Below, piece by piece: positions 6,001 through 58,738 of a stretch of 64,000 bases of DNA. The first letter of the stretch is position 1, and every line of letters starts with the position of its first letter. Source of the stretch: Candidatus Methylacidiphilales bacterium (GTDB taxonomy: Bacteria; Pseudomonadota; Gammaproteobacteria; JASGCS01); NCBI GenBank assembly GCA_030054035.1, contig JASGCS010000006.1, positions 1-64,000 of the forward strand, in the 5' to 3' direction. Made by a program: the position numbers and the translations under genes. Below the pieces are notes generated by a model. It was given only the letters and a program-made list of their open reading frames with translations. It had not been told where the DNA came from and ran no database searches.

Positions 6001-7448
6001 GGGCTATTTGTAGTGTTATATAAGTCAGTCCAAGAACTAGTATTTAGATTAAGAATATACACATTGCCAGTTTTATCACCATTGCTATTTGTAAAATTTG
6101 AAGCTCCAATAGCTAAATATAGATCGCTTAAGGCTACCGATGAGCCAAAGTTAGAGTCATTGACTAAATCTCGCGTTGGATTAAATGTTGAGACAAATCT
6201 AGAAATAATTGTTTGAAAAAAATCTACTGAAGTAGGAAGATCTGAAATCAAAATATAATCTGGATCTATCACAATAGTACCTGCACTAGCAAATTGCGAG
6301 AATGCTTGTACTATTCCATTGCCTAATTTTAATTGGGTATGGGCTGATATTTCTATAAAACCTCCATTACCATATTGTGCATTAGCCAACAAAGTACCAT
6401 ATTGCTCAACAAGATTGCCCTTAATAAAGAGATATCCTGCTGATGTAGTATTGGTCGCACTTACTGACAGCAACGAAGAGGTATCTATAGCAATGATAGC
6501 AGGGTATGTCTGTGGCGTACCAAGAACAATGGTGTGGGCAAACACTTGCGCGCCAAATAATGAAAGTGAGTTTTTTGCCTGTAGCATAACCGAGGTGGCG
6601 TTAATTGTTGACGACAAAATAATATCACTACTGACTGCTGACACGGATACTGTTTGAGCATTGAGGCGCGACTCGGTGTTAAGCGCTACTGCACCACCAC
6701 GAATGGAAATGGTATCAGCGCGATAGTTGCCACTGAGTGAAATATATCCAGCATTTAATTCCGCAACGTTTGCTTGCACTTCCCCGCTACCTATCAATGA
6801 AGCCGAAGCAAACAAGTCTACTTCCCCTTCAACTGCACTAACACGCCCCTGCAACAAGATATCCTGGTACGCTCTTATTAACACCTTCCCATATGCTTGA
6901 CCTGAATGAGTGACTGAGTTTTGATGGATGCTAACAGTTTCTGCTAGCAATTGTATTTTTTTTGCCTGGATAACACCTTGAAGCTCAATGGAATTAGTGG
7001 GGAGTCCGTTTTCAATGGAAATTAAATTTTGATCGGCGTTATATGCTATTTGCCGAGCAGTAACAGTAGCTGCAATAAAAGTATTTGCAGAAACTGAAGA
7101 GTGTGCACCAAAATAAAATCCGTTTGGATTAAGTAATACCACCCGTCCATTTGCTACCAGTGAGCCTAGTATCTGGCTTGGTTGTTGTCCCAGTATTGCA
7201 TTAATTGCAATTGATGTAGTTGATGGCTGTCTAAATTCAACTACAGAGCCTTGGCCAATTGAAAATGATTCCCATTGTATGATTGTGGAATCAGTAAATT
7301 GAGTAATTATGGTTTGGTTACCACTCTGTTCAACTTGAGCCCCCCCATCACCTGAATGAAAAACTGGTTGCTCTGCAAATAAATCTGAAACCAAGAGCAA
7401 GGTACTCCAGAATAACAACAAACTCAATGTTTGTATATTATTCTTCAT
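1..7448 (-). CDS. Giant two-partner-secretion adhesin with FG-GAP repeat block (3' end outside window)
   Basis: About 2,482 codons are present. The frame stays open from the ATG at 7448 to the left edge, so the C-terminus is missing. Visible in order: a Sec signal peptide (residues 1-25); a TPS/haemagglutination-activity secretion domain with NQTIITQ (44-50) and NPNGFYFG (107-114); beta-helix-like sequence ending in AGTIVIDPDYILI near residue 400; about 21 FG-GAP-like repeats (about 435-1,930); then filamentous-haemagglutinin-type sequence resuming with SLTSMLSANVSLIAT and continuing with LTLTA and DIG motifs. Proteins of this family are exported by a TpsB (FhaC/ShlB) outer-membrane porin, and no such gene is visible here. 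The start codon lies inside pilY1, overlapping its last 11 bases, which implies translational coupling to the pilus operon. The identity of the TPS domain is firm. The adhesive role and its ligand are inferred. Confidence 0.9.
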   Translation of the reverse strand, partial: MKNNIQTLSLLLFWSTLLLVSDLFAEQPVFHSGDGGAQVEQSGNQTIITQFTDSTIIQWESFSIGQGSVVEFRQPSTTSIAINAILGQQPSQILGSLVANGRVVLLNPNGFYFGAHSSVSANTFIAATVTARQIAYNADQNLISIENGLPTNSIELQGVIQAKKIQLLAETVSIHQNSVTHSGQAYGKVLIRAYQDILLQGRVSAVEGEVDLFASASLIGSGEVQANVAELNAGYISLSGNYRADTISIRGGAVALNTESRLNAQTVSVSAVSSDIILSSTINATSVMLQAKNSLSLFGAQVFAHTIVLGTPQTYPAIIAIDTSSLLSVSATNTTSAGYLFIKGNLVEQYGTLLANAQYGNGGFIEISAHTQLKLGNGIVQAFSQFASAGTIVIDPDYILISDLPTSVDFFQTIISRFVSTFNPTRDLVNDSNFGSSVALSDLYLAIGASNFTNSNGDKTGNVYILNLNTSSWTDLYNTTNSPVSLLIDNTVVGLNPSFGSSISLYGDYLVIGAPGAITNNAGVKLVTGKAFIYKLDGGNGFTATCATTGLLISAWCDLSSIPASPVPSLAANSGFGSAVAVRNNNIAIGAIGVAPAGLATKKHGNVYLYNITSQVWTNIGTTYPTTVSRANAQFGWSVALNSDFLAVGAREYTLDSSCTGNSCILNGEVFLFRINGTNAFTSACETVGTLTSPYCALSTIDVDTATVGVQNPFTLVACKDNLYCYFGNALTINDSFIFLSANYAGEYAIGKIYAYRIDGTKYFQSSSTNCGTTGLIRAASPFCDFSLLPSSPFVRLADTSRDEINLGSSLASNNSFLVVGATNYYITPSTGDIKFYTGNVYTVALCVLNSTPCANPWTSLIDIDENITQAGIQNPFTAFPIGTEYQLGNAVTLNVNFIAAGAWKYLVNRGNVYLYALRDRSFTDIYNTNYNASDTFSSGSALGTSVATYIDTATPANSYVLLGAPGSVNDRGSAYLLKFKVNSHLDFWWEDLSAALLSNQQVSNNLRSCTTSSTPGSLCTGGSKFGTSVAINSTYAVIGAPGENAGQGGAYIFRLDHNNNVPNPGNTCPTPTSTTMQPWLWCNLSNYDTDTTGGNQVPQNPILLLAANANFGYSVSISSNDHIIIGAPKATTGATNTATGNAFLLSLNPATNYDSNCHTGAGPTFNTFWCDLSTTTTNPNPITTLTSGARFGESVVINSTYAVIGASNANSGIGNGYIYRINGNTNSFNASCGTSTPNSLWCTISNANGYSALALPTGSKLGSSVSITSDSRLVAIGAPGTSTMKGEVIIYKTDNANVFSSNCAISGTLNTPFCKLSTHSYYSSLPLVAGSSFGASVSIQTIPITVLSVTQNIDFVLIGAPKDSAGQGRAYLYNINSTNTTTHKLGCVSTTTSNSWCMFQLSSSQSQPFGSYANYAFGTSVSLNSYYSLVGAPGVSYNLGEAYIFYNDQVNRFTTECALPVGGATPSVSTCSLARFLTSSNLLSGASPSSSLSGASVFGVSLALTDTTVIIGAPGLFSGRGDAFILSIKDLTWLDLATTIRQPILALPVGSNFGASVAVANSNHLIGGKNSSVFLIGAPGKSNGRGSAYLYSQPEINSLTFSTNCQVNAASISSQWCNLEDATMSTVGVLAEGSLFGTSVALYSDATRLMAIVGAPGAITGISPTQIKTGDVYLYNVSGLDSFNATCGVAGPTTPWCKLSNSGDFASQAITQGSNFGFSVALNAQYALIGAPGASSLRGDAFLYRISGEPTFNATCGIATATSAWCKLSTATGFSTLSLASGHWFGYSVALNNNVLLVGSPNASVGGNAFLYRINGTNYFDSSCVTTAGTLTTPWCRLSSLAAYPAVAGDKFGWSVSINDSFVAVSSPYFHANEEGTAYLYEIATTTFNNVRSGGASNPANTLAINSYFGYDIALSNSYILVGAPGQNNANGNAFLYLIANYGTLASNTTIISTASLTSMLSANVSLIATKDISFASSFTYLGANTLTLTAPTINAYYLFPKSDIVTVTNLTINATGDIGTELHPLIFDGQLANLTAASSGGNLYLAHVSNVQYLISASQRSCSGVSCLSVASANELSLSQLHGGINLTSNILFANSIGTLTLRTLAQNSAINTNSFSITTSSSTALQLISATGIIGSGTFSASRVTLRAYYGDIGQSGTSLGYIISPALPISANSIVLYAPFGSVYLRSSNTVNVSSYLLGSLNTNFAFLEQTTGNVVFTSSFIKPTSQRPLTLQISALQSGSSINVGSFSISSDSILLSAPLNISGSGTLSTDANGRLQLVATNGSIGTSLASLILNTTSSNWTTSNLTLSAPAGSIYIKTPIPDILTVLTIPSSTIAFSPSATFDYEYTAGNISLPSSLIYPNATIKLTASATSATIDLSSFNITATTISLTADTNLTTTTGILTSGASGTISLTSTNGDIGSSTNPILITQNAITGDLSASAAAGNIYLSSTSSSLTLGAITSATAATNIILISASA
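1660..6130 (-). repeat. Array of about 21 FG-GAP-like protein repeats inside the TPS adhesin
   Basis: Reading the minus-strand frame, the pattern FGxSVAxN..Y.LIGAPG followed by a G-A/N-x-Y/F-L-Y strand recurs every 55-85 residues. Cores fall near 6110, 5900, 5680, 5450, 5200, 4980, 4770, 4560, 4340, 4090, 3850, 3620, 3380, 3150, 2930, 2730, 2490, 2260, 2060, 1860 and 1690. This is the FG-GAP motif of integrin-alpha-type beta-propellers. Most units carry a Cys pair, one after the YLYRI strand and one in a WCxLS motif. The count of 21 would fit three seven-bladed propellers, but this is a hand count and two or three units are degenerate. Repeats are diverged at the DNA level. Confidence 0.85.
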
Positions 7449-10400
7449 ACCAATAGCTTTTTATTAATCCATTAGTAATACTTCGGTCATCTATAACTTT
7501 CTGTAATTTTTGATTATTAGGGGCAATTGCACCACCAGCTTGAGCAATTAACCTGGTTTGGTTTCCTAGTTGTGCGATAGATAAATTAGGGATAGTCCCA
7601 CCTCTGTACAATTTTCTATCTGAAATATCTACAATTCCATCATTATTAAGATCATCAAGCGGAAGTGCAGTTAGCACATCAATATGATAAGTAAACCCTG
7701 ATCCATTACTTACTGCACAAGTATTGCCCGAGCTGACAAAATTAGTCCCAGCTCTAGTAAATGAAGGAAAATTCCAAATGCCGTAGAGAACAAAACCACC
7801 ACTCGTAGCTCTTTCACTATTAGCATTATCAAAATTGAAATACCATCCACCAGTTCCAGTACTAGGGTTATACACCATAGTTAATATTTGCGCACTGGTT
7901 AAGGTAGTATTAGAAAGATTGGTAAGATCTGAAACTGTTTTTACAGATGGATGATTATTATAGTAATTAGCTGCAGCGCTATTACTACTCATTCCGTTTA
8001 ATGCAAAGTTTTCAATGATAGCAAATGCACCATCTTGTTTAAGATCGCTCGTAGTAAGCTTTTCTCTGTTTCCACTGGTAATTAATATCAGATCAAAACT
8101 CGCACGAAATGCTCCAAAATTATAATCTCTCACTTGGACAACTTCTGGGCGATTAAAGAAAAACCTTCTCGTAGTGTTGTTACCTAAGGTGCTCAAAGAT
8201 GCAATTTTTTTTACGATGACTCTAGGAGAACTAGAGGCACCAAGATCTAGCACATCAACTCTCCAGACATTGCCAACGATATCAACAGCGTAAACTCGGT
8301 CTATACAATTAATAGCTGTAGCAGGACAATTTGAGGTAGTGTTTTTTGTCGCTACTACCGGCGCCACGATAGGGTAGAGCATGTCCGCATAATCCCCAAC
8401 GACTGCCCCGCTTACATTTGTCCCAGAAATATTTGCACCATCGTTAGAAACTCTTAGTACGATGGGATTATCGGAAGATTCATAAATACTTGTTACTCTA
8501 GAGCCGCCATTTCTCAATTTTTCAGCAATTTCAGAAGCTTGCTCCTTACCAAAAGCATTAACAAAATAAATTGCATTTCCATAATTTACTGGTACAGCCG
8601 CTGGAGTAAGTGCGACATAATCAGTGCTGTCAAAAGTATCGTGAAAACCCCCTCCAAACACCACAACATCTCTGTAATTATTCGGAGTATTTAGAAAATT
8701 ATAATTAGTTTTTTTATCACTATCACCAATTCCAACATATACACTCGTTGAAGAAGTTGATAACGAATCACGCACTAATACAGTTGATGGCTCAAACCAA
8801 ATCTGACCAATACGATTATCTAAAACCCATGTAGCTGGTAATGCACTCTGGGTAGGGTAATTTGGATAGCAGTTAGTAAAATCGCTACCAGAATCCGTGT
8901 ACGAAGCAGAACATTGCGGAAGTGCAGTAAGGGGTGAGCTTATGTTTGGGGGAGCAGGCGGGTTAATAATATTATTTGCGGTAATTCGATAGTTTAAACT
9001 TGGGATAACATGATTATTATGGCTGGAATTTTCACCGATGATTAATTTATCTTTATTACCAAAATTGAGATTATTAATTAGGTTTAGGCTTAATGAATAT
9101 AATCCAACCCCACCTCTTCGAAGTCCAAAATATGTATTATACCCATCGAGGGATACTACTTCGCCATTGGATCGTTGAATTGAACGATCAGCTTGGGAGC
9201 AATTAGCACTTGAAGTGCTTGGATTATCTAAATCACCAGTAGCATACGAAGTTAAGCAACTAATTCTCTTGATAGAAATCTCTCCATCCATACCAACCGT
9301 ACGATATTCAGTGCTATAGTCGTAGTTTAAAGTATTTGGATCGTTAGGATTAAACAATTTATAAACTTTTGGAAAAATATCAACTAATTGGTACGCCCAT
9401 TCTTCTCTTCCTGTATCATCATTGATTAACCGAATCTGACCATCATTAGTGCCGATTAAAATTTTAACTACATCATTCGGGGACTCACCATTGAATGACA
9501 GAACTCGAGGGGTGACATGCACGGCAGAAGGAAAATTATAACGAACACTATTAGTCGTAAGCGGCAATGATCCGCCACCTTCATTTACTCCATAGAGCCA
9601 CGAAAGAACGCTTGAAATACCACTGGTGCCATCTTGTGTGTAATACACAAGTGAATTTTCATTTAGCGATCTCAGTCTGCAATTTGGTAATGGGGAAGTT
9701 GGATTACTATATTGAACAAAAGATCTTAAATACCAACAGTTATATGATCCATAGTATTTAGATTGGTTGTTTTCACTTTGCGCGAATGAGGTTAACCATG
9801 GAATAGTGTCTTGATTAATTATATTAAACTGTCTTTGCCCATATCTTTTAATACTTACAGACGACTTAAGATTTGACCAATCAACTAAATTATCATGCGG
9901 AGCAACTGACGATGTTGGATAGTACGAAGCGGTATTTGGAAACGGGTAGGTAATATCTTGGTGTGGGAATATTGAAGAAAATAAAACTCTTCTCGCGTCT
10001 ATAGTAATATCCACACCAGTTGCTATTGGAGAGCCAACACTTGGACGATAAAAATTAAAACTAGTGTTGGATGTTGTATTAAAATTCATCTGATTATACA
10101 ACTGTTGCCTTGCCCCTCCCTTTAATACATCGGTGCTATCTGCTGACGACCAGTATGAATTTAACAACAGACCTGTTGAACCGTTGTCATCTACAAATAT
10201 TTTCCCATCGCTCCCAACTATGTATCCTGCTTTACCACTACAAGCAGTGTCTGTATCAGAAGATAAACATAGTCTATATTTCTTAAGATTTCCTTCCCAA
10301 TAATGTCTCTGAGATGGAATATATAAAGAAAAATAAATGAAACCGCTCGCCCGATCACTTCTAAACTGATCAATCGTTACAGCAGGTGATGCAAATGAAG

Positions 10401-13400
10401 TGCCAGAAGTTAATATTGATATTAATGAATCATTTAGCCATCCTGAAAGATCATATGAAGAAGCATTCAGTCTAACCGTGCCACTACTGATTCTACTTAT
10501 ACCATTGATAACTGCATTTGAAGCACCCCCTGAGGTTAAAAAACTTGGACGAGTAGCAGATGCATTAATAGCATTAGGCTCCCAAATACTAGTTTGGGTT
10601 AACCCTGCTACAGGGACGGAGCCGAGTAAGAATGAATTTACTATAAACGGTTTTATAGAGCCACCGCCAGTAGCCGTAACTGACTTGGTCTTATTGGCTA
10701 ACCATGAAACCATTTCGTAAATGCAATTCGCAGTATGTTCATACGCTCGAGCATTGGATGATGCAATATGATTTGCAATTGCAGATGTCGTTCCTAAAAC
10801 TGTCGCTAAAGACTGAAAAGTACCAGTTCCTGTTGTATCCCAAGTAGGCGGAATCGTGCCACTAAAATTTGCATTGCTACTCAGATCAACAGTTGTTGTA
10901 TAGTAAACAGGATTTATACCAATTGGAGCAAATACTGAAATCGGTGAAATACAAGTGCCTGAGCTACTTACACCAGAGCTTGCTATGTAGTTTAAAAATG
11001 TATCGCTAGGATTTGTGGTTTGGGCTACACTAGGGTTTAAACAACTTTTGGCTTTTTCTACTTCAGATAAGGGCAAAGTTGCACTAGGTTGTGCGCCAGT
11101 ATTTGATGCAAAATACCCACTATTGGTAGCAAGGTAAGGGTCACAAAATGCAAGCACATATGGATTGTTAGCACTCACACTACCACCAGAGATTGCTCTA
11201 ATATTGGAAGTAACTTTTAAAGAGAGTTCTGGCCAATCATTAGCATTTCCTATCACTAAAATATAAAACTTATCACAGTCTGAAAAGGTAAATGTATCAA
11301 ATGGTGAGCGATATCTAATTGGTGCCCCAGAATATCTTTGGATAGCTGTAGAAGAAAAACAAGAAGGATCAGAAATATTCCAAGCAGAACATGCTGAGGG
11401 CAATCCTGCAACCAACACTGGAGACTGTATAGCATTAGGATTAGAGATTGTGTCATTTGTTTGGATAACACCTTCTGTTACGCTGTCCGATTGATTGTTA
11501 ATTCGCAAACGATTTGCATAGGTGGTGTCATTTGGGCTTGCGATATGAGCGCCCCTTCTAAGACCATAAAAGACTGAATCCCCTTTTATATATCGGATCA
11601 GTTCTTGAAATTGTGCCTGAAGCGACCATTTACCGAATGGTTTTACTTCCGAGCGAATAAAATTAGGAATATATTCCTTAACTGTTTGACAAGATTCAAC
11701 TGCAGAAATTACGCAACGATAATAAATTGTTAACCTAGGCTGAGGCAATGTACCAAAAGTTGGCGAATCACCAGCCGCACCAAACCCAATCAACCTAGGA
11801 GGGCTAGACGAGCAATTAGGGTTACATTTGTAGCGATTGTAATCTGAATCATTTGTAATTCCTGTACTATTCTGCAAAGTAAAACTTAATGTACTCCCTG
11901 GTTGCCACCGTATCGTACTACCACCAGAAGTAGCCGTCATGCTAGTCAAGGCGGTAATTTGATTAGCAAGATTTGGTGAATCATACTGCACATAGGTAGC
12001 TGGAAGTGTTGCATTAAAGTCATTGGGGTTTGTAGATATGGGGGTGTTGCCTGGGAGTTTTGAATATTGATAGCTCCAAGTACCCAAACTCCAATTAGTT
12101 ACAGTTCCCACCGAACCTGATGGTGACAAATGTTTAGCGCCACATATTTCTGCAATTTCTTTTGATGTTGGCGTGTATCCGACACCACTATTATTTTCAA
12201 ATTTATACACCATGGCAGGAGAGCTGTCTCCTTCAATTGGGTAATTAAAAGAGCTTGCTTGCGTTAGTCCATTAGGGTATAGCCATTCACTATCAATTTT
12301 TGCATTTTTATTTTTTGGTGAGTTCAAATATATATCTAACGACGATACTTGAGTACTAGAATAATTCCTAGTAGTGGTGTACTCATAGTCATAGGGAGAT
12401 GTATTGGCACTAGGATTAAATGACCCTGCAGGCACAGTAACTCCATTAACTTTAGTAATCTGACTTGCGCTTGTGTCTGTTGTGTATCTGCTTATAATAG
12501 GCGTGCTTAAAGTTAGAAAGGCTCGGGTAATGTTACTCGTGCTATCAAGAGGTACTTGATCAAAATTCAATACCATGGCGCCCCGCTTACCTACATACAT
12601 GTCAAAAGAATAATTTCTAGTGTTGTTTTCTACTGAATCCGATGTTTGCGCTGAAGGTTGGGCCTCACAGGAGATATACCCTGGCTGATAAAAATTCCTA
12701 TTCTTATATCTACTAGAAGGAACAGTAACTTTATTTACCCAATTTGGATTAACTTGTCCCCAACTCCATGATTTTGTCCCATTAGCATACAGCACAGTTT
12801 TTCTCTCTAGGCAACCATTATTAACTCCAGAAGCAGGATACAGCTGACTTAAAGAGACACTTAAAGATGCTTTAGAAGTTAACATTGGTCTCATATACAT
12901 TATTGGTCTAAAGCTAGGACCAATGGAGGAAGTATTTGAAAATTGAAATCTATCAATGGGTTGTTGCGTGGAATTCACTGAATCAAAATTCGTACTACTA
13001 TTTGGGTCGCCGCTTTTAAAACTTGGCAAACCAGCTGTATTAGCATTAGTTGAGGCACTGTAATAGTAATTACTTGAACTTAGCTCAGGTCGGACTCTAA
13101 CAGTTATGCCTTTATCATACGCCCCACAATAAGATGATCTATTAATCAAACTTTGCAATAACTGACCTATTGGTAAAGAAATGACAGAGCTATTATGATT
13201 ATATGTATAGTAGGCGTCGCAAACTCCACTCCCAAGATTAGTTGTTGCTGCTGGAATTCCAGTAGGTCTAGAAGCGCAGATCACTAAAGAAGCGCCATTA
13301 AAAGTTGATCTTGAATTTGGTTTTGAGGCGCTAAATGGCAACGAATCATCAATATACTCAATAGTAACTTGAAAATTATAATTATAGATAGGTAGTCTAG

Positions 13401-14799
13401 TTACAATTGGAGCTCTTCTTATAGCAGAACTAGACTGCACAGTAGTAAAAACACTCGGATAATTTGTGCCCCGTGATGATGGGGTAGAAGTAGATAGGTC
13501 TTGGCTACAATATATATTATCTACAGAGCCCGCGTAAATTTTCTGCAGAGCTGATAAGCTCCCAGAATTAACGACTGGGTTTGTAACATCGTCATTATCT
13601 TTTACAGTATTGATACCTAAACAACCAAGAGAAATTTCCAAATTTGAATTAGCAACCGTTGCCGCTCTATTTAATGGTAAATTAGTAAAGCGATAGAATA
13701 ATTCAGGACTCGTGCCAGTTACTTGTTCACTCGTGCTACAAATAAAAGGGATCAGCCAATATCCAACTTGGCTCGTAGTAGGTATAAAACTACCAGGGTT
13801 GTTAGCAGTTATATAGGAATTATTTACGGTAGGAATAGTAGTATCTAAGTATCCTGGAACTTTTTTAACAAATACTATGGTATATGGCTGTAATAGGTAA
13901 GGAAAACTACCGTAAGTAAGAGGATTAGGCCCGCTATTAGAAAATACATCCCAATTAGCGCCTATAGTTGTATTATTTCTAAAATCAGTTTGTGCTGTTA
14001 ATACTATATCACCCCTTCTTTGAATGGTAAGATTACTATTATACTGACCTACTCTAACTGTAACAGAACTAGGCAATCCAGTTGGTAAACCAGACGCAGC
14101 GGGCGGAAAAGTGATAGTTGAAGTAAGGGAAGATGTTCCTCGACCAGTATCAGCAAGATTAAATACATAGTAAGGCACTAAAGCAGAAGTGGGGTTTGGA
14201 TAAGGCAAGAGATAAGCATCTTCGCCAGTTGGGGTAGTACTTGGACAAGAGTAATTAAAATTATTTGGGACAAATGAAGTTACTCCTTGAGCAGTATAGT
14301 AATGCGCAGAAATGGTAGAGATTTTATTTCCAGAAATCTTATTAGCAGTTATAGGATTGGTAGTGCTGTATTGTTCGGCTTCGTAGTTATTCAATTGTTG
14401 GTTAAAATTATTTGCGGTTGGATTCTTAAAAGCATTTTGTGCGGTTGGATTTGCTGCAGTCGCATTAAGGTTTAGATCAACGGCTGGGATAGCAACTTTG
14501 GCGCCATGTGAACTGGTTAAAAGCCCAACTTTACCATTGTATCTACTGAGCTGATCTAATATTGGTGTGAGCGCGTCAGCAATGGTTGCTCTATCTCCCT
14601 GTGTCATAAGCGCCCCAGTGTCTAGCATAATTAAAACCAATGGCCCAGTAAGCGAAGTAGCGCTTGGAGTAATGAAAAAGATATCTGTGTCTTCTGCGTT
14701 AGATAATGCACTAGCGAGAAGTGTTAGTGTTACACTTACACTCATGATTCCCAACAGGATAAGTCTAGTAATACTTCGCTGTAGCTTTGGAAAAATCAT
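7438..14799 (-). CDS. pilY1: PilY1-type type IV pilus tip adhesin, unusually large
   Basis: 2,453 residues, about twice the usual PilY1 length. A signal peptide (1-35) is followed by a von Willebrand A-like start, LVLIMLDTGALM (residues 54-65), in which the usual DxSxS metal-binding motif is reduced to DTGAL. A very long Ser/Thr/Asn-rich middle has no domain I recognise. The C-terminal PilY propeller begins near residue 1,800 (DGQIRLINDDTGREEW) and includes GNVWRVDVLD near 2,176. A calcium-loop motif DLNNDGIVD sits near 2,383. In the family, PilY1 sits at the pilus tip with the minor pilins, mediates adhesion and modulates retraction. It overlaps pilX by 4 bases upstream and the TPS adhesin by 11 bases downstream. 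The large size suggests an expanded ligand-binding region (inference). Confidence 0.92.
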   Translation of the reverse strand: MIFPKLQRSITRLILLGIMSVSVTLTLLASALSNAEDTDIFFITPSATSLTGPLVLIMLDTGALMTQGDRATIADALTPILDQLSRYNGKVGLLTSSHGAKVAIPAVDLNLNATAANPTAQNAFKNPTANNFNQQLNNYEAEQYSTTNPITANKISGNKISTISAHYYTAQGVTSFVPNNFNYSCPSTTPTGEDAYLLPYPNPTSALVPYYVFNLADTGRGTSSLTSTITFPPAASGLPTGLPSSVTVRVGQYNSNLTIQRRGDIVLTAQTDFRNNTTIGANWDVFSNSGPNPLTYGSFPYLLQPYTIVFVKKVPGYLDTTIPTVNNSYITANNPGSFIPTTSQVGYWLIPFICSTSEQVTGTSPELFYRFTNLPLNRAATVANSNLEISLGCLGINTVKDNDDVTNPVVNSGSLSALQKIYAGSVDNIYCSQDLSTSTPSSRGTNYPSVFTTVQSSSAIRRAPIVTRLPIYNYNFQVTIEYIDDSLPFSASKPNSRSTFNGASLVICASRPTGIPAATTNLGSGVCDAYYTYNHNSSVISLPIGQLLQSLINRSSYCGAYDKGITVRVRPELSSSNYYYSASTNANTAGLPSFKSGDPNSSTNFDSVNSTQQPIDRFQFSNTSSIGPSFRPIMYMRPMLTSKASLSVSLSQLYPASGVNNGCLERKTVLYANGTKSWSWGQVNPNWVNKVTVPSSRYKNRNFYQPGYISCEAQPSAQTSDSVENNTRNYSFDMYVGKRGAMVLNFDQVPLDSTSNITRAFLTLSTPIISRYTTDTSASQITKVNGVTVPAGSFNPSANTSPYDYEYTTTRNYSSTQVSSLDIYLNSPKNKNAKIDSEWLYPNGLTQASSFNYPIEGDSSPAMVYKFENNSGVGYTPTSKEIAEICGAKHLSPSGSVGTVTNWSLGTWSYQYSKLPGNTPISTNPNDFNATLPATYVQYDSPNLANQITALTSMTATSGGSTIRWQPGSTLSFTLQNSTGITNDSDYNRYKCNPNCSSSPPRLIGFGAAGDSPTFGTLPQPRLTIYYRCVISAVESCQTVKEYIPNFIRSEVKPFGKWSLQAQFQELIRYIKGDSVFYGLRRGAHIASPNDTTYANRLRINNQSDSVTEGVIQTNDTISNPNAIQSPVLVAGLPSACSAWNISDPSCFSSTAIQRYSGAPIRYRSPFDTFTFSDCDKFYILVIGNANDWPELSLKVTSNIRAISGGSVSANNPYVLAFCDPYLATNSGYFASNTGAQPSATLPLSEVEKAKSCLNPSVAQTTNPSDTFLNYIASSGVSSSGTCISPISVFAPIGINPVYYTTTVDLSSNANFSGTIPPTWDTTGTGTFQSLATVLGTTSAIANHIASSNARAYEHTANCIYEMVSWLANKTKSVTATGGGSIKPFIVNSFLLGSVPVAGLTQTSIWEPNAINASATRPSFLTSGGASNAVINGISRISSGTVRLNASSYDLSGWLNDSLISILTSGTSFASPAVTIDQFRSDRASGFIYFSLYIPSQRHYWEGNLKKYRLCLSSDTDTACSGKAGYIVGSDGKIFVDDNGSTGLLLNSYWSSADSTDVLKGGARQQLYNQMNFNTTSNTSFNFYRPSVGSPIATGVDITIDARRVLFSSIFPHQDITYPFPNTASYYPTSSVAPHDNLVDWSNLKSSVSIKRYGQRQFNIINQDTIPWLTSFAQSENNQSKYYGSYNCWYLRSFVQYSNPTSPLPNCRLRSLNENSLVYYTQDGTSGISSVLSWLYGVNEGGGSLPLTTNSVRYNFPSAVHVTPRVLSFNGESPNDVVKILIGTNDGQIRLINDDTGREEWAYQLVDIFPKVYKLFNPNDPNTLNYDYSTEYRTVGMDGEISIKRISCLTSYATGDLDNPSTSSANCSQADRSIQRSNGEVVSLDGYNTYFGLRRGGVGLYSLSLNLINNLNFGNKDKLIIGENSSHNNHVIPSLNYRITANNIINPPAPPNISSPLTALPQCSASYTDSGSDFTNCYPNYPTQSALPATWVLDNRIGQIWFEPSTVLVRDSLSTSSTSVYVGIGDSDKKTNYNFLNTPNNYRDVVVFGGGFHDTFDSTDYVALTPAAVPVNYGNAIYFVNAFGKEQASEIAEKLRNGGSRVTSIYESSDNPIVLRVSNDGANISGTNVSGAVVGDYADMLYPIVAPVVATKNTTSNCPATAINCIDRVYAVDIVGNVWRVDVLDLGASSSPRVIVKKIASLSTLGNNTTRRFFFNRPEVVQVRDYNFGAFRASFDLILITSGNREKLTTSDLKQDGAFAIIENFALNGMSSNSAAANYYNNHPSVKTVSDLTNLSNTTLTSAQILTMVYNPSTGTGGWYFNFDNANSERATSGGFVLYGIWNFPSFTRAGTNFVSSGNTCAVSNGSGFTYHIDVLTALPLDDLNNDGIVDISDRKLYRGGTIPNLSIAQLGNQTRLIAQAGGAIAPNNQKLQKVIDDRSITNGLIKSYWYEE

Positions 14800-48089: not shown

Positions 48090-49106
48090 TTATATTCCAA
48101 AAAAATTCTTTCGCTCATGTTGATTATGATGGAGATAAAACGCAGCATTAGAAAATCCAGAATACTGTGGCGTGAATCCTTTAGTTTTAGTTATAGGTAT
48201 ACGATGGTATTTTGACGCCCCGCTTAACGCACATAAATCTACCAATAAATCAATATTTAACTTAAATCTTTCCTGCTTAGAAATTTTACTATATCTCGCC
48301 CATCTATCATGTAAGGGGGCATTATCTTCGCTTGAAAATGAATTAGTCGATAAAACTATCTGGCCAGTAAAATACTGCATACCATATTCAATCACTTCCT
48401 GTCGATCCGAACAAATTAAGAGATATGTGGAGGTTATTTCAGGTTTTATTTTCTCAAAAAATGTTTTATAATCTGAAAAGTAATCAGTGCATCTCACATG
48501 AATTGATTCATACATTTTCCCATTGAAGTGTTCTAATCTAGAAATTATTTGGTTGCTAATTGTTGGTTTTACTCTAAACCATGTAAAAACTCCTAAAGAT
48601 TTTATTTCTTGTAGATCTTGAAACCCAACGGAATTCTGATAAATCAATAGTTGCGAATCGTAGGGTTTGGTCAAATCAAAGAAGGTTGGTTGCTTTGAAT
48701 CGGGATTTATATAACCAAGTATAAGACCTGAATTATCAAAACCAAAATTATAGTTCATTTTTTGTTCTGTAGTCTTATGTAATAAAAATGGTTGCGTTGA
48801 AGGTAGTGCAAATATTTTTTGCTTCAACGCTTCAGTTAACTCAAGCTCAACACGAATTGGTAAATTTTTTTGTAGGACAAAATATTTTGCAAAGGCGTCA
48901 TGTAGACCAGAATATGATGTGTCAATCACTAACATTCTGTTATTAGTTATTGCATATTGTAAACAGCGATGTATGCTTGCCATCGTATCAGTAAACCCCC
49001 CCATACTACGACAGAAAACAACTCGCACTTCTCGAAAAGCAAAATAATAATATTTTTCTTTTATAAAAAACAATAAAGGTGTAAATATAATCTTTAGAAT
49101 AATCAC
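48090..49106 (-). CDS. Fucosyltransferase-like protein, paralogue 2
   Basis: 338 residues. A hydrophobic N-terminus (IILKIIFTPLLFFI), then VFCRSMGGFTDTMASIH, LVIDTSYSGLHDAFAKYF, IHVRCTDYFSDYKTFFEKI, LLICSDRQEVI, NIDLLVDLCALSGAS. The same motif order as its paralogues suggests gene duplication followed by strong divergence. It presumably adds sugar to a cell-surface glycan. The donor and acceptor are unknown. Confidence 0.55.
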   Translation of the reverse strand: MIILKIIFTPLLFFIKEKYYYFAFREVRVVFCRSMGGFTDTMASIHRCLQYAITNNRMLVIDTSYSGLHDAFAKYFVLQKNLPIRVELELTEALKQKIFALPSTQPFLLHKTTEQKMNYNFGFDNSGLILGYINPDSKQPTFFDLTKPYDSQLLIYQNSVGFQDLQEIKSLGVFTWFRVKPTISNQIISRLEHFNGKMYESIHVRCTDYFSDYKTFFEKIKPEITSTYLLICSDRQEVIEYGMQYFTGQIVLSTNSFSSEDNAPLHDRWARYSKISKQERFKLNIDLLVDLCALSGASKYHRIPITKTKGFTPQYSGFSNAAFYLHHNQHERKNFFGI

Positions 49107-49138: not shown

Positions 49139-50152
49139 TTAATCATTATTAACAAAGATTTTATTTCTGATTGTCTGGTGTTTTTGTAAATGCATTGCTA
49201 AGATAGTAAATCCTGAATATTTAACAGTTTGGGCTTTACTAGGCAGTAATATGGCTGGGTGAAATCGCACAGATCCACTAAGTCCATATAAATCAGTTAA
49301 TAGGTCAATATTTAAATTGTATCGCTTCGATTGAGATAATGTGTAATAGCTACTTTCCTCAGCATGAAGTGGGGTACCGTCAAGACTCGCGAATGAATTG
49401 GTAAATAGTAATTCAATAGAATGTAAATTATTTTTTGCGTATTCTATAACCTCTTGATTATCAGAACATAGTAATAATGTTTTTGTTTTTAACTTACTTT
49501 GGAGCTTCTGGAGGAAAACTTGATAGTCAATACTATAATCGGTACATCTAATATGCGTTGCGTCATATTTTAGAGCGCTAAATGAATTTGTGCGCTGTAC
49601 AATTTTCTGGGAGACTTCAGGTCTCAATTTCAGATACGGTAGTACCTTTATAGCATTATGCGCGCCTCCTCCAAAATAATGGTAGATTAGAAAATCTGAA
49701 TTGTAATCCCTAGTCAAATCAAATGAAGTTGGCTCTCCTGAAAGGGGCTCAATACAATTTTTAGTATGAGCATTAATTTCTGTTTGATACTGTAACATTT
49801 CTATTCCATTTCTATTTTTTTGAAACGGCTGAGTGGTGCTCATCGCAATGATCTGCTCAGTAAGCACAGGAGTCAACTCCAGCCCCAGCAAACCAGGTAT
49901 AGGCTTTTGCAATGTGAAATAATTAGCCAACGAGTCATGCAGGCCTGACAATGTCGTGTCAATTATTAATAATCGATTATACTTCTTTGCGTATTGAATA
50001 CACTTATACATTACACCAAGGGAGTCAGTAAGACCGCCCGTAGGTCGACATAATAGTAATCGGGATTTACCAACTATCTTGCGCTTCGTAATGATAATGA
50101 CTTCAATGGCTCTTATGAAAACATTTCTAGCCACAAAGTAAAGTATTGCCAT
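49139..50152 (-). CDS. Fucosyltransferase-like protein, paralogue 3
   Basis: 337 residues. Motifs: LLLCRPTGGLTDSLGVMYK, LLIIDTTLSGLHDSLANYF, THIRCTDYSIDYQVFLQKL, LLLCSDNQEVIEYA, NIDLLTDLYGLSGS. N-terminal hydrophobic segment. Follows pyrF by 10 bases, so the pyrF promoter probably drives the whole group pyrF-GT-GT-AAA-like-GT. Confidence in glycosyltransferase identity is moderate because it rests on motif resemblance. Confidence 0.55.
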   Translation of the reverse strand: MAILYFVARNVFIRAIEVIIITKRKIVGKSRLLLCRPTGGLTDSLGVMYKCIQYAKKYNRLLIIDTTLSGLHDSLANYFTLQKPIPGLLGLELTPVLTEQIIAMSTTQPFQKNRNGIEMLQYQTEINAHTKNCIEPLSGEPTSFDLTRDYNSDFLIYHYFGGGAHNAIKVLPYLKLRPEVSQKIVQRTNSFSALKYDATHIRCTDYSIDYQVFLQKLQSKLKTKTLLLCSDNQEVIEYAKNNLHSIELLFTNSFASLDGTPLHAEESSYYTLSQSKRYNLNIDLLTDLYGLSGSVRFHPAILLPSKAQTVKYSGFTILAMHLQKHQTIRNKIFVNND

Positions 50153-51436: not shown

Positions 51437-52234
51437 GTGATTATTTCAATCGCCAATCAAAAGGGTGGGGTAGGTAAAACTACTACATCAGTAAACCTAG
51501 CATCCAGTCTTGCTAGCCTTGGTCAAAAAGTTCTATTGATAGATCTAGACCCTCAAGCCAACGCAACGATATCTTGCGTATCAGGCATTGAAGAAACCCA
51601 AGACCTGTCTACTCTACCAGGATCGTATCAAATTCTCCATGGCCATTTAAGTGCCGCTCAAGCCACAATACGACTTCCTGCTTTTGGTTTTGACTTAATC
51701 CCATCTCAAGCGATGTTAACTGCAGCTGAAATTGACCTGCTCTCGATTGATTCGCGCGAACACCGTCTTAAAAAATCACTGCAGGAAATCAAAGATACCT
51801 ACGCTTACATACTAATTGACTGTCCACCTGCAATAAATTTATTAACCTTAAATGCGCTGATCGCATCCACAAGCGTTCTCATACCGATGCAGTGTGAATT
51901 TTTTTCACTGGAGGGTATTGCCAGACTTGTGGATACCATAACTACTTTACGAGAATCGTTAAACCCGCAATTAACTATTGAAGGAGTGCTAAGAACTATG
52001 TACGATGCCAGAATGACACTAGCCATTGAAGTTGCTGAAAGATTAAAACAAGAATTTGGCACAAAAGTATTTGATACATTAATCCCAAGAAATGTGAGAT
52101 TGGCAGAAGCCCCAAGTCACGGAAAACCTTGTATGTATTATGATAAAGGATCTAGGGGAACTTTAGCATATTTAGCACTTGCCTCAGAAATATTGAACAT
52201 TGCCAATCAAACAAAACAAGGAGCGCTCGCTTGA
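51437..52234 (+). CDS. parA: Chromosome partitioning ATPase ParA (Soj)
   Basis: 265 residues from a GTG start. The deviant Walker A KGGVGKTTT (residues 9-17) has the signature Lys. LLIDLDPQANAT and ILIDCPPAINLLT are Walker A' and B. The short N-terminus marks a chromosomal Soj-type ParA rather than a plasmid type. It segregates origins with ParB. It overlaps parB by 4 bases. Confidence 0.94.
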   Translation: MIISIANQKGGVGKTTTSVNLASSLASLGQKVLLIDLDPQANATISCVSGIEETQDLSTLPGSYQILHGHLSAAQATIRLPAFGFDLIPSQAMLTAAEIDLLSIDSREHRLKKSLQEIKDTYAYILIDCPPAINLLTLNALIASTSVLIPMQCEFFSLEGIARLVDTITTLRESLNPQLTIEGVLRTMYDARMTLAIEVAERLKQEFGTKVFDTLIPRNVRLAEAPSHGKPCMYYDKGSRGTLAYLALASEILNIANQTKQGALA

Positions 52235-53157
52235 ACAAACAAAGAGGTTTAGGTAAAGGAAGTTTAGGTAAAGGTACTGGAGATCGACTTGCCCGAACAG
52301 GTGGCATGACTGCATTTATCAAAAGTATAGAAAAGCGAGATACTCGCTATGGGGATTCTGAATTATTAAAAATAGATATCTCGTCAATAGAACCAAATCC
52401 ATATCAACCGAGAAAACAATTTCCAGCAGATACAATCAAGGCGCTTTCAGAATCAATCTTAGCAAAGGGCATTCTTCAACCAATCATTGTCAGAAAAAAC
52501 AACAAAGATGGCTTCCAAATCGTCGCAGGGGAAAGAAGGTGGAGGGCTGCCGCTCTGGCAGGCATAAACACCATTCCTGCTATTGTGCGCCAGGTAAGCG
52601 ATCGTGACTCTGCAATGTATGCGGTTATAGAAAATATTCAACGAGAAGAGCTTAATCCAATTGAAGAGGCGTTTGCACTTAATAGCCTTATCAAAGAACA
52701 TGGCGCGACTCACGAAGATATCGCATCAATGATTGGAAGAAGCAGATCTGCAGTAACGAACAGTCTTAGACTACTCACCCTCACCAAAGAAGTAAAAACA
52801 TTTCTATCTGAAAAACTACTTGATCAAGGCCATGCCCGCACATTAGTCCCTCTTAATGAAAAGCAACAACTTCAAGTTGCCTCAGAGATAATAAAACACA
52901 AACTAAGCGTTCGCCAAGCTGAGAAGTTAGCACAAGGCCTTCTCAAACAAACAGAAGCCAAAACTAAACCAACAACAAAAAATTTCATACTCTCTTCCGA
53001 CAGTAGCAAATTAGAAAACGCCATCAGCAATGAACTTCAAGCCAAAGTCAGCATCTCTCACAACAAAAACTTTAAGGGCACTATTTCTTTTCACTTCAAC
53101 AACAACGATTCATTTATACATATACTGCATAAACTAGGGCTAAAGCGATTTTTGTAA
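52231..53157 (+). CDS. parB: Chromosome partitioning protein ParB (Spo0J)
   Basis: 308 residues from a TTG start with AAGGAG 7 bases upstream. The N-terminus RGLGKGSLGKG, the IEPNPYQPR motif, the CTPase box GERRWRAA, and the helix-turn-helix HEDIASMIGRSRSAVTNSLR are present. It binds parS, loads SMC and stimulates ParA. The last 136 bases of the gene are repeated at 55662-55797, beyond the downstream R-M cassette. No parS sequence was noted in the window. Confidence 0.94.
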   Translation: MNKQRGLGKGSLGKGTGDRLARTGGMTAFIKSIEKRDTRYGDSELLKIDISSIEPNPYQPRKQFPADTIKALSESILAKGILQPIIVRKNNKDGFQIVAGERRWRAAALAGINTIPAIVRQVSDRDSAMYAVIENIQREELNPIEEAFALNSLIKEHGATHEDIASMIGRSRSAVTNSLRLLTLTKEVKTFLSEKLLDQGHARTLVPLNEKQQLQVASEIIKHKLSVRQAEKLAQGLLKQTEAKTKPTTKNFILSSDSSKLENAISNELQAKVSISHNKNFKGTISFHFNNNDSFIHILHKLGLKRFL

Positions 53158-53165
53158 TCTAAACT

Positions 53166-53312
53166 TTAAATACCTAGATTATCAAGTGGCTTTTTATACT
53201 GTTCAAATAAATCAATAATTTCGCCTAATTCACTAATGTATTGTCTCCGATCTTTCAATAGTTTGATTGTAACTTTGTCGTTTAGGTAATCTTCCAATGT
53301 TAGCTCACTGAC
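53166..53312 (-). pseudogene. 3' remnant of an unknown gene
   Basis: Minus-strand frame of about 48 codons ending with TAA at 53166: VSELTLEDYLNDKVTIKLL, then ISELGEIIDLFEQYKKPL. It looks like the C-terminus of a helical protein but has no start codon of its own, and a TGA precedes it. I do not recognise the parent gene. It sits between parB and the R-M genes, so it is probably debris from the same insertion. Confidence 0.35.
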
Positions 53313-53521
53313 CTTCCCCCATCAAGCGGGTGTGTAGTAAACGAGGTCGGGAAATTCCTTACGATTTCCTTCATAAAATGTGAATTTTATAGAATTTGGT
53401 TAGAGAAAGCTTGAAACTGTTTCGAGAAAATACGAATAATTAAAAACACTTATCTGGACTCGTCAGAGCGATACAATTTGTCTGAGGGAAAGGGAGTCAC
53501 CTGCCTCAGTTGGTTTCCTGC
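53313..53521. other. Non-coding stretch between gene remnant and methyltransferase
   Basis: 209 bases with no supported gene, RNA or strong hairpin seen. Together with the remnant at 53166-53312 it makes a 360-base spacer between parB and the R-M cassette, much longer than is usual in this window. Confidence 0.4.
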
Positions 53522-54541
53522 TCAAAAGAGGGATCTGGGGAGGAATGCGGGTGCATTTTTTAATCTTTTCTTTTTTGTTTCCGAATTTAGTGCCACTTGA
53601 AAACTGTCCCGCCACATTACTTCTTTGTTCTTCCTTGCTTCTCGTTTTAACTTAATCTTTGTAAAATCAATATCTTTCGGATTTTCAGGAATTTCAAAGT
53701 GTTTTGATAATGAATCCCAATCTTTATCTCTCAAGGTTCTTATTTCATCGAGATAGAAACTAACCCAAACCTTATCAATTTTAGAATCAGCTTTCACTTT
53801 TTCCAAATTAGCTTCGCTAATCTGAGTGTATTTTTTGTCTAAATCAAAACCAATATAATTTCTACCTAGTTTTTTTGCAGCTATTGCTGTTGTGCCAGTT
53901 CCGCTGAATGGGTCCAAAACAATATCGCCTTCATCGGTAGTCATTAAAATTAGTCTTTCAAGTAAATGAACCGGAAGCTGGCAAGGGTGTGCGTCTCTAT
54001 ACTTGTTATGTTTAATTCTGTGAATATCAAACCAAACATCTGAAACCAAAGGACCAAACGGATGAAGTCCTGCCTTTTTCCCACCATAATCCTTTTTTAA
54101 ATATGCGGACTTCCTCTCTCTTTCGTGAGGCATTCTGATTTCGTTAATCTTTGTTTGCTTGGGCTCTTTTACATAGAACAAAATTCCATAATGACCTGGT
54201 TGCAAGCTTTTTCCCATTGGTGAAGTAGGGGCATTCCAAGCAATCCAGTGTTTAAAATTCGCGTGCTCGTTTAATAACTTCACATAAAAAGTTAGCCATT
54301 TTGGTATATTGTGAACAAAAATTGATCCGGTGGGTTTTGTAACCCTTACCATCTCACTAATCCACTTATCGCACCAATCAATATATTCTTTAAACTCTAG
54401 ACTATCTTTATACCCGTTATATTTTTTCTTTAGATTGAATGGCGGGTCAGCAAATGTCATGTCCACAGAGTTACCCGGAATATCTTTTAATAATTTTAGA
54501 CAATCACCCTGTATTATTTTATTTAAGTATTTATTTGACAT
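53522..54541 (-). CDS. Type II DNA methyltransferase (beta-class)
   Basis: 339 residues. Catalytic motif ADPPFN (31-36) precedes the AdoMet motif DPFSGTGTTAIAAKKLGR (about 213-230), the beta-class order. DPPF suggests adenine-N6 (or cytosine-N4) methylation. The C-terminal 100 residues are Lys-rich with no known motif. It protects the site cut by the endonuclease encoded just upstream, 11 bases away. The host context (parB duplicate, debris) indicates an acquired cassette. Confidence 0.88.
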   Translation of the reverse strand: MSNKYLNKIIQGDCLKLLKDIPGNSVDMTFADPPFNLKKKYNGYKDSLEFKEYIDWCDKWISEMVRVTKPTGSIFVHNIPKWLTFYVKLLNEHANFKHWIAWNAPTSPMGKSLQPGHYGILFYVKEPKQTKINEIRMPHERERKSAYLKKDYGGKKAGLHPFGPLVSDVWFDIHRIKHNKYRDAHPCQLPVHLLERLILMTTDEGDIVLDPFSGTGTTAIAAKKLGRNYIGFDLDKKYTQISEANLEKVKADSKIDKVWVSFYLDEIRTLRDKDWDSLSKHFEIPENPKDIDFTKIKLKREARKNKEVMWRDSFQVALNSETKKKRLKNAPAFLPRSLF

Positions 54542-54552
54542 TCGGCCTATAA

Positions 54553-55533
54553 TTAAAGAAATATTTTAATAAGTAATTTTTCGAATCTTCTCAATTCATC
54601 TTTATGAAAAGTAAAAACATCATCATAAGCTGATACCATTCTTTTTAGATCTCCTTTTCTAACATACCAGCCGACACCATCAACGAAGCCAATAAATCTA
54701 GCTTTTGGATAGTGCGACTTAATAAGTTTTTCTATGGATATTTCCGTTTTTGATTTGTCCCCTTGTCCGGAACTTGTTGTTGCTAGAAACGAACTTTCTA
54801 CGATAATTAGCGGTTTTCTCTGGTTGGGGACAATAAAATCCATTGTTCTTTTATTATCTGGTGCACTATTTTTTAACTTGCTTAAATCGCCTTTCTCGAA
54901 TGGAATGTCAAGGTTAATAAGTATTTTCTCTATTAATAATTCTGGGTTGTTTTCTCTCATACCAGAGTAACTTCCTTTTTCCTTATATCTAATTAAGGTA
55001 TCAATCATTTCAGGCAATTCAAATTTTAATTTTGAAATGCTTAATTTTTTCAATTCAAACAAAGGAACTGTTTTTGTTAGAAATGGAATGCTTGAACCTT
55101 CAAAAAAAATATTGATTATTCCTTTTCTAAAATATTTATTTTCTTTTATAAGTTTCGTAATCTTTTCATCTGACCATTCTGTTAAATTATCAATATCATC
55201 ATTTTGAAACCATTTATCTTTGTAAACTAATTTACTCAATTCTGGATCATTAACAACACGAATAATAGTTGTCAATCTTTTTAATGTTTCATTTGAAAAA
55301 CCTGTGAGTGCGAGTAACGCCCTCAACCCATTTTCTTTATCAATTAACAAAGCTTCAAAATATTTCTTTTTTAATCCTTTTGTATCAATTTCGTTTTTCA
55401 ACATCAATAATATTTCTTTTAATGAGTTTAGATAGCCTTCATATTTTTGTTCATAATCTTGATTAAAAAAATAAAAAGTATTCTTATTAATTACGGTTTT
55501 AAATTTTAAATTAGTTGTGGGTTTATTTGCCAT
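54553..55533 (-). CDS. Type II restriction endonuclease, DpnII/MboI-like
   Basis: 326 residues, Lys- and Ile-rich. The C-terminal third carries a PD-(D/E)xK-type core: TMDFIVPNQRKPLIIVESS (Asp then Glu, about 230-248), then a polar SGQGDKSKTE and FIGFVDGVGW, the layout of DpnII-family enzymes. The N-terminal two thirds are probably the DNA-recognition domain. First gene of the R-M pair. The recognition site cannot be read from the sequence. DpnII-family membership is tentative; nuclease identity is more secure from its pairing with a methyltransferase. Confidence 0.75.
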   Translation of the reverse strand: MANKPTTNLKFKTVINKNTFYFFNQDYEQKYEGYLNSLKEILLMLKNEIDTKGLKKKYFEALLIDKENGLRALLALTGFSNETLKRLTTIIRVVNDPELSKLVYKDKWFQNDDIDNLTEWSDEKITKLIKENKYFRKGIINIFFEGSSIPFLTKTVPLFELKKLSISKLKFELPEMIDTLIRYKEKGSYSGMRENNPELLIEKILINLDIPFEKGDLSKLKNSAPDNKRTMDFIVPNQRKPLIIVESSFLATTSSGQGDKSKTEISIEKLIKSHYPKARFIGFVDGVGWYVRKGDLKRMVSAYDDVFTFHKDELRRFEKLLIKIFL

Positions 55534-55630
55534 ATTTATTAAATTAAATCATCAATTTGAACATCTAATTATTTCTTTCATAATTCTATAGCATTATAGT
55601 ATATAGAAGACCTTACTCTTAAAACAGTGT

Positions 55631-55802
55631 CAAATCTTCGCTGATGTTTCTAACAAAATACAAAACGCCATCAAAAACGAACCTCAAGCCACAGTCAGCA
55701 TTTCTCACAACAAAAACTTTAAAGGCACTATTTCATTTCACTTCAATAACAACGATTCATTTATACATATAATTCATATACTAGGGTTAATGCGATTATT
55801 TA
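55631..55802 (+). pseudogene. Diverged duplicate of the parB 3' end
   Basis: Bases 55662-55797 align without gaps to parB 53015-53150; a hand count gives 122 identities in 136. The frame still encodes the ParB C-terminus (SISHNKNFKGTISFHFNNND), but the stop position is changed and there is no start. The R-M genes lie between the two copies. It looks like the old gene end displaced when a foreign segment with its own parB end joined, or a duplication followed by drift. Confidence 0.85.
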
Positions 55803-55827
55803 ATTTTATATTATACCTTTGCCTGGA

Positions 55828-55889
55828 TTATGGATCAATAATTGAGTACTTTTGATTAATTATTCTGATTGGTATATTTATGGATCAAT
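55828..55889. repeat. 12-bp direct repeat at a probable deletion scar
   Basis: TTATGGATCAAT occurs at 55828-55839 and 55878-55889. The second copy contains the stop codon of the truncated NTPase gene. Short repeats of this kind often bracket deletions. Confidence 0.4.
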
Positions 55890-56102
55890 GCAAAATAAAA
55901 ATATATTGGGATTAATCCAAACTACAAAGTAGTTGGCTTTATACTTCTCGTTCTTAAAATAATCTTGGACAAATGTTGATTTACCTATTCCAAATCTGCC
56001 CGAGAACAGTATTCTTTTGCGATCTTTAATATACTCATCAAACTCACTTAGTAGCTCATCTTGTGGCACCCAGAGATAGTTTCGGGGACTAGCTTCATGC
56101 AT
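55878..56102 (-). pseudogene. N-terminal fragment of a P-loop NTPase
   Basis: 74 codons. LWVPQDELLSEFDEYIKDRK is followed by Walker A ILFSGRFGIGKSTFVQDYF (about 31-49), after which the frame ends within 25 residues. A real P-loop ATPase needs at least 150 residues beyond this point, so the gene is cut. The pattern suggests a STAND or KAP-like defence/signalling ATPase, but this cannot be confirmed. A TATAAA lies 9 bases before the ATG. Confidence 0.6.

Positions 56103-56229: not shown

Positions 56230-58738
<2,509 letters not shown>

What the first reader, a model, noticed from the sequence alone, without database searches (positions are those of the whole stretch)
53015..55797. R-M cassette bracketed by two copies of the parB 3' end
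A 136-base segment at the end of parB recurs beyond the type II R-M genes with 122 identities by hand count. The second copy is non-functional. This is the footprint expected when a cassette joins at a gene 3' end and replaces it with its own version, or of a duplication that trapped the cassette. Insertion beside the partition locus near the origin is notable.
Basis: partly seen in the sequence, partly recalled or inferred. Interest (0 to 1): 0.6.

Follow-up and report, generated by a model that had tools for sequence, protein, structure and literature searches.

The report
Mobile restriction-modification cassette beside parB
A DNA-cutting/DNA-protecting gene pair has inserted just after the chromosome-partition gene parB and duplicated the gene's last ~155 bases in the process, and close cousins of the same pair in three unrelated bacteria are bracketed by duplicated ends of quite different genes, which marks it as a recurrent, known way for such pairs to move.

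Summary
The repeat is real: window 53004-53158 (3' end of parB, to 1 nt past its stop) recurs at 55651-55804, ~85-88% identical, far beyond chance. Between the copies lies an intact, constrained type II R-M pair (R 54553-55533, M 53522-54541, both minus). I tested the cassette family instead. Its M and R are up to 84% identical in Moranbacteria, Blackburnbacteria and others, so the pair moves widely. Three other members sit between long direct repeats of a different host gene's 3' end: prepilin peptidase 457 bp (98%), an AddB-like nuclease (~424 bp, partly deleted) and a hypothetical gene (120 bp, 99%). For the first, a near relative lacks R-M and has one copy running straight into the downstream flank: a direct empty site. 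Best reading: insertion with long target duplication, described for R-M genes by Nobusato 2000 and Furuta 2010. The distal parB copy is a decaying duplicate. Replacement of the parB end by a version carried on the cassette is not supported, though not excluded. New member of a known kind.

The parts
52231..53157 (+). parB, intact (308 aa); its 3' end is the proximal repeat copy
   Evidence: ParB_N, HTH_ParB, ParB_C domains
53004..53158 (+). proximal copy of the duplicated target (parB residues 259-308 plus stop plus 1 nt)
53159..53638 (.). about 480 nt between the proximal copy and the native end of M; single copy in the genome, no relative found; origin unknown
53639..54541 (-). M: beta-class N6/N4 DNA methyltransferase, conserved part (301 aa); 84% identical to Moranbacteria M
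53522..53638 (-). non-native C-terminal extension of M: native stop lost, frame reads on 38 aa
   Evidence: L041/L042/L043 M end at aa 301
54553..55533 (-). R: type II restriction endonuclease, DpnII-like C-terminal part, BstEII-like predicted fold
55534..55650 (.). upstream region of R up to the distal copy; no M1 gene here, unlike in the closest relatives
55651..55804 (+). distal copy of the parB 3' end, decaying relic with a 1-nt deletion at the stop
55878..56102 (-). fragment of a P-loop ATPase between distal copy and gyrB (flank, not cassette)
56324..58738 (+). gyrB, flank on the far side

Best explanation
A horizontally travelling type II R-M cassette (R-M here; M1-R-M2 in its closest relatives) inserted at the end of parB with a long target duplication. 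About 155 bp of host DNA ending at the parB stop codon was copied, so that one copy completes parB on one side of the cassette and the other was left as a free 3'-end relic on the far side. parB stayed intact because the duplicated stretch reached its stop codon. The relic has since decayed by ~12-15% while R and M stayed under purifying selection. Shown: the repeat, the cassette, the same anatomy in three other hosts, and an empty site in one of them. Inferred: that the same event happened here, and that the DNA step was joining of an incoming fragment into a long staggered or repaired break followed by fill-in (no transposase or integrase lies between the copies).
For: Repeat and its limits. 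R and M hit 80 kept loci in many phyla, 75 of them with R beside M, top 84%/81%. Substitutions are overwhelmingly synonymous (pN ~0.10 vs pS ~0.7-0.8). Bracketing repeats: 5 of 60 testable loci vs 3 of 267 random segments of the same loci, Fisher P 0.006 (other flank widths). Of the five, L092, L063 and L098 duplicate the 3' end of the neighbouring gene while leaving that gene intact. Empty site: relative L125 (98% identical prepilin peptidase) has one 457-bp copy running straight into the sequence right of the cassette in L092, and R is absent from that whole genome. In L063 the full repeat is confined to the two places flanking the cassette. The cassette is antisense to parB here but sense to its gene in L063, L092 and L098, so no fixed orientation. 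Literature: some R-M systems insert with long, variable (order of 100 bp) target duplications (PMC3874152; PMC3031569).
Against: No empty site in this lineage. The copies here are only 85-88% identical, so identity at insertion is inferred. About 480 nt of unexplained DNA lie between M and the proximal copy, so the cassette does not abut the repeat on that side. Differences are denser towards the edges of the repeat (P 0.04), which simple decay does not predict. Most family members (55 of 60) show no bracketing repeat above threshold.
Confidence: 0.8

Rival explanations
1. The incoming DNA carried a parB 3' end from a related strain and joined by homologous recombination, so the proximal copy is foreign and the distal copy is the displaced original.
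For: Four of the five changed codons in the central part are synonymous, as between two once-functional orthologues. In the L092 case the left copy is slightly further from the relative than the right (440 vs 444 of 457), with 5 of its 6 derived sites clustered next to the cassette.
Against: Over all 50 codons the synonymous share fits neutral decay (7 of 19, expected 4.5, P 0.13). The distal copy is off-consensus at conserved ParB residues (L269P, L261I, S266K, L299I). Other family members duplicate other host genes.
Confidence: 0.1
2. A partial tandem duplication of the parB end existed first, and the cassette later landed between the copies.
For: Cannot be told apart from the final product in this window alone.
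Against: It would have to happen separately in four lineages; the near relative of the L092 host has a single copy.
Confidence: 0.07
3. The distal copy is a remnant of a second, once complete parB or partition locus unrelated to the cassette.
For: The distal frame is open for 82 aa.
Against: No other part of parB is found at the site, and the only other match in the genome is this fragment. Identity ends at the parB stop.
Confidence: 0.03

Closest known systems
R-M insertion with long target duplication (Nobusato et al. 2000, Gene 259:99; Furuta et al. 2010, NAR 38:2428; seen through PMC3874152, PMC3031569, PMC4978471)
   Same: R-M genes bracketed by a direct repeat of host DNA of the order of 100 bp or more; no transposase or integrase between the repeats; variable length and site.
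   Different: Here the duplicated DNA is the 3' end of a gene in all four bracketed host-gene cases, including parB; the duplication at this locus is old and partly decayed; members range from ~120 to ~457 bp.
Integrase-type islands that enter gene 3' ends and restore them
   Same: Element next to a gene end with a duplicated end fragment.
   Different: No integrase, no shared core sequence, a different gene each time, and either orientation.
DpnII/BstEII-like type II restriction endonucleases with beta-class MTases
   Same: Pfam DpnII match and BstEII as best fold match for R; M resembles M.MboIIA, CcrM and RsrI MTases in sequence searches.
   Different: Low similarity to any solved enzyme; recognition site unknown; many relatives carry a second MTase (M1) that is missing here.

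Membership tests
R-M insertion with long target duplication | Direct repeat of order 100 bp or more flanking an R-M unit | tested here: met
   155 bp, 85-88%; others 120, ~424, 457 bp
R-M insertion with long target duplication | Single copy of the repeat and no R-M in an otherwise collinear relative | tested here: inconclusive
   Met for the family member L092; not testable in the window's own lineage
R-M insertion with long target duplication | Duplicated DNA is of host, not element, origin | tested here: met
   Different host gene in each bracketed host-gene case; L086 is the exception: its repeat is the 3' end of M
Type II R-M system | Adjacent REase and MTase genes, both intact | tested here: met
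Type II R-M system | Cleavage and protection of the same site | not testable with these tools
   needs enzymology or methylome data
Integrase-driven island at a gene 3' end | Integrase or transposase gene within the bracket | tested here: not met
   only R and M ORFs between the copies
DpnII endonuclease family | Match to Pfam PF04556 above the gathering score | tested here: met
   25.5 vs 23 bits, C-terminal part only; G224 homologue 31.8

The most novel reading that the evidence does not exclude
This M1-R-M2 / R-M2 family is a self-moving unit without a transposase whose own nuclease makes or exploits the breaks it enters, each time copying 120-460 bp of a host gene's 3' end. In L063 and L098 the stop codon of M lies inside the duplicated host DNA, and in this window M has lost its native stop, as if the mobile unit ended at the last codons of M.
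Probability: 0.2. Interest if true: 0.65.

Novelty: new member of a known kind. Interest (0 to 1): 0.42.

Why it matters
How R-M genes enter new chromosomes without a transposase is poorly understood. This locus leads to a widely transferred R-M family in which the same scar can be read in several phyla, with one clean before-and-after pair of genomes. That gives exact junctions to model and a defined cassette to test. For the window itself it explains an odd parB fragment as an insertion scar rather than a partition feature.

Tried and rejected
Relatives of the host for an empty site: none in the same order; 56 class-level genomes give ParB at 37-47% identity, too distant for DNA comparison. 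Genome contigs with ParB: nothing. R on plasmids: none of 72,556; phages: two matches at ~24%; one IMG/VR contig (L130) at 75% next to transposase-like genes. Tested whether the 480-nt stretch 53159-53638 is a repeat or known element: single copy, no match. Tested relatives of the L063 and L098 hosts for empty sites: none close enough. Inverted repeats around L041, L116 and L119 differ from each other and are not found at this locus, so they are not the family's ends. L086's repeat is the end of M itself, not host DNA, so it was not counted as a target duplication. L095's weak repeat involves a transposase-like gene and was not counted.

Full report
Observation. The 3' end of parB (53004-53158, ending one base after the stop) recurs at 55651-55804 on the same strand, 2647 bases away. 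The best local alignment scores 212, against a maximum of 36 in 1000 shuffles. It is the only direct repeat of 45 nt or longer in the window. The distal copy is an open but headless frame that matches ParB residues 253-307 only.

What lies between. Two minus-strand genes: R (54553-55533) and M (53522-54541). M is an N6_N4 methyltransferase, close to M.MboIIA, CcrM and RsrI in sequence searches. R matches the DpnII family over its C-terminal part, and its predicted structure (mean pLDDT 87) finds BstEII as the one significant solved match. The same pair in the same order occurs in genome G224 (L034; M 54%, R 30%). A scan of named genomes returned 80 M loci, of which 75 have R beside M. The nearest are Moranbacteria (84% M, 81% R), Blackburnbacteria (83%/82%) and Elusimicrobia (81% M, R not found there). 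Nucleotide changes between these and the window are overwhelmingly synonymous (pN ~0.10, pS ~0.7-0.8), so both genes have been kept working. Forty-two of the 75 loci carry a second methyltransferase, M1, in front of R, including the closest relatives L041, L043 and L044. This window has none, and none was found in the genome. The M gene here has lost its native stop at residue 301 and runs on for 38 residues.

Is the duplication a property of the insertion? The host belongs to an order with no other held genome, so I asked the question of the cassette family. With M1 counted as cassette where present and 1-kb flanks, 5 of 60 testable loci have direct repeats across the cassette, against 3 of 267 random segments in the same loci (P 0.006). 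Three of the five, plus this window, duplicate the 3' end of an adjacent gene that itself stays intact: L092 (Desulfamplus), 457 bp of a prepilin peptidase at 98%; L098 (Ignavibacteriales), an AddB-like nuclease with an internal deletion in the distal copy; L063 (Paludibacter), 120 bp at 99% across the end of a hypothetical gene and its terminator-like stretch. The other two are L086, where the repeat is the end of M itself, and L095, a weak repeat of a transposase-like gene. For L092 a near relative has the peptidase at 98% and no R gene anywhere. It has one 457-bp copy, and its sequence runs from the left flank of the L092 cassette straight into the right flank, overlapping by exactly those 457 bp. 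That is a direct view of an insertion with a 457-bp target duplication. In L092, L063 and L098 the cassette points the same way as the gene; at parB it points the other way.

Which copy is original here. At the conserved ParB positions that differ (257, 261, 266, 269, 299), the distal copy carries the off-consensus residue. The share of synonymous changes (7 of 19) does not differ from neutral decay (expected 4.5, P 0.13). This fits a duplicate that lost its function and decayed. It does not need a foreign parB end. Two details stay open: differences are denser at the edges of the repeat here (P 0.04), and in L092 five of the six derived sites of the left copy lie in its last 63 bp (clustering P 0.007). 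Error-prone synthesis at the junction, or a short donor tail, could both do this.

Mechanism. Shown: a mobile R-M family, repeated long target duplications at gene ends, and one empty site. Inferred: joining of an incoming fragment into a long staggered or repaired break with fill-in. Gene 3' ends are probably seen because a duplication that reaches the stop codon leaves the gene whole, so such insertions survive; this is inference. The fact that the stop codon of M lies inside the duplicated host DNA in L063 and L098 suggests fragments that end near the last codons of M.

Known or new. Insertion of R-M genes with long, variable target duplication was proposed from genome comparisons (Nobusato 2000; Furuta 2010, both read here only through PMC3874152, and PMC3031569). 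This is a new member of that kind, at a partition gene, with unusually good support from sister loci.

Noticed in passing
window 55878-56102 (-): Truncated P-loop ATPase fragment (weak similarity to NTPase parts of defence proteins) stranded between the distal parB copy and gyrB; no intact copy in the genome.
   Followed up: partly
window 53159-53638: About 480 nt of unmatched DNA between M and parB, with a short minus-strand remnant frame; it replaced the native stop of M.
   Followed up: partly
L092:3169-3625 and 7253-7709: Polarised against a relative, the copy inside the working gene has 6 derived sites vs 2 in the relic, 5 of them in the last 63 bp beside the cassette.
   Followed up: partly
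L086:4761-4840 and 6946-7025: The 3' end of M recurs upstream of R, perhaps the remnant of a tandem copy of the cassette.
   Followed up: no
L041:39-153 / 3737-3849; L116:3149-3374 / 8614-8839: Near-perfect inverted repeats around two M1-R-M2 cassettes, unrelated to each other; the L116 one has relatives in L113 and L118.
   Followed up: partly
window 48090-49106 and 49139-50152 (-): Two adjacent genes encoding similar-looking proteins of 338 and 337 aa, with no Pfam match.
   Followed up: no
window 7438-14799 (-): A 2453-aa open frame with no Pfam match.
   Followed up: no
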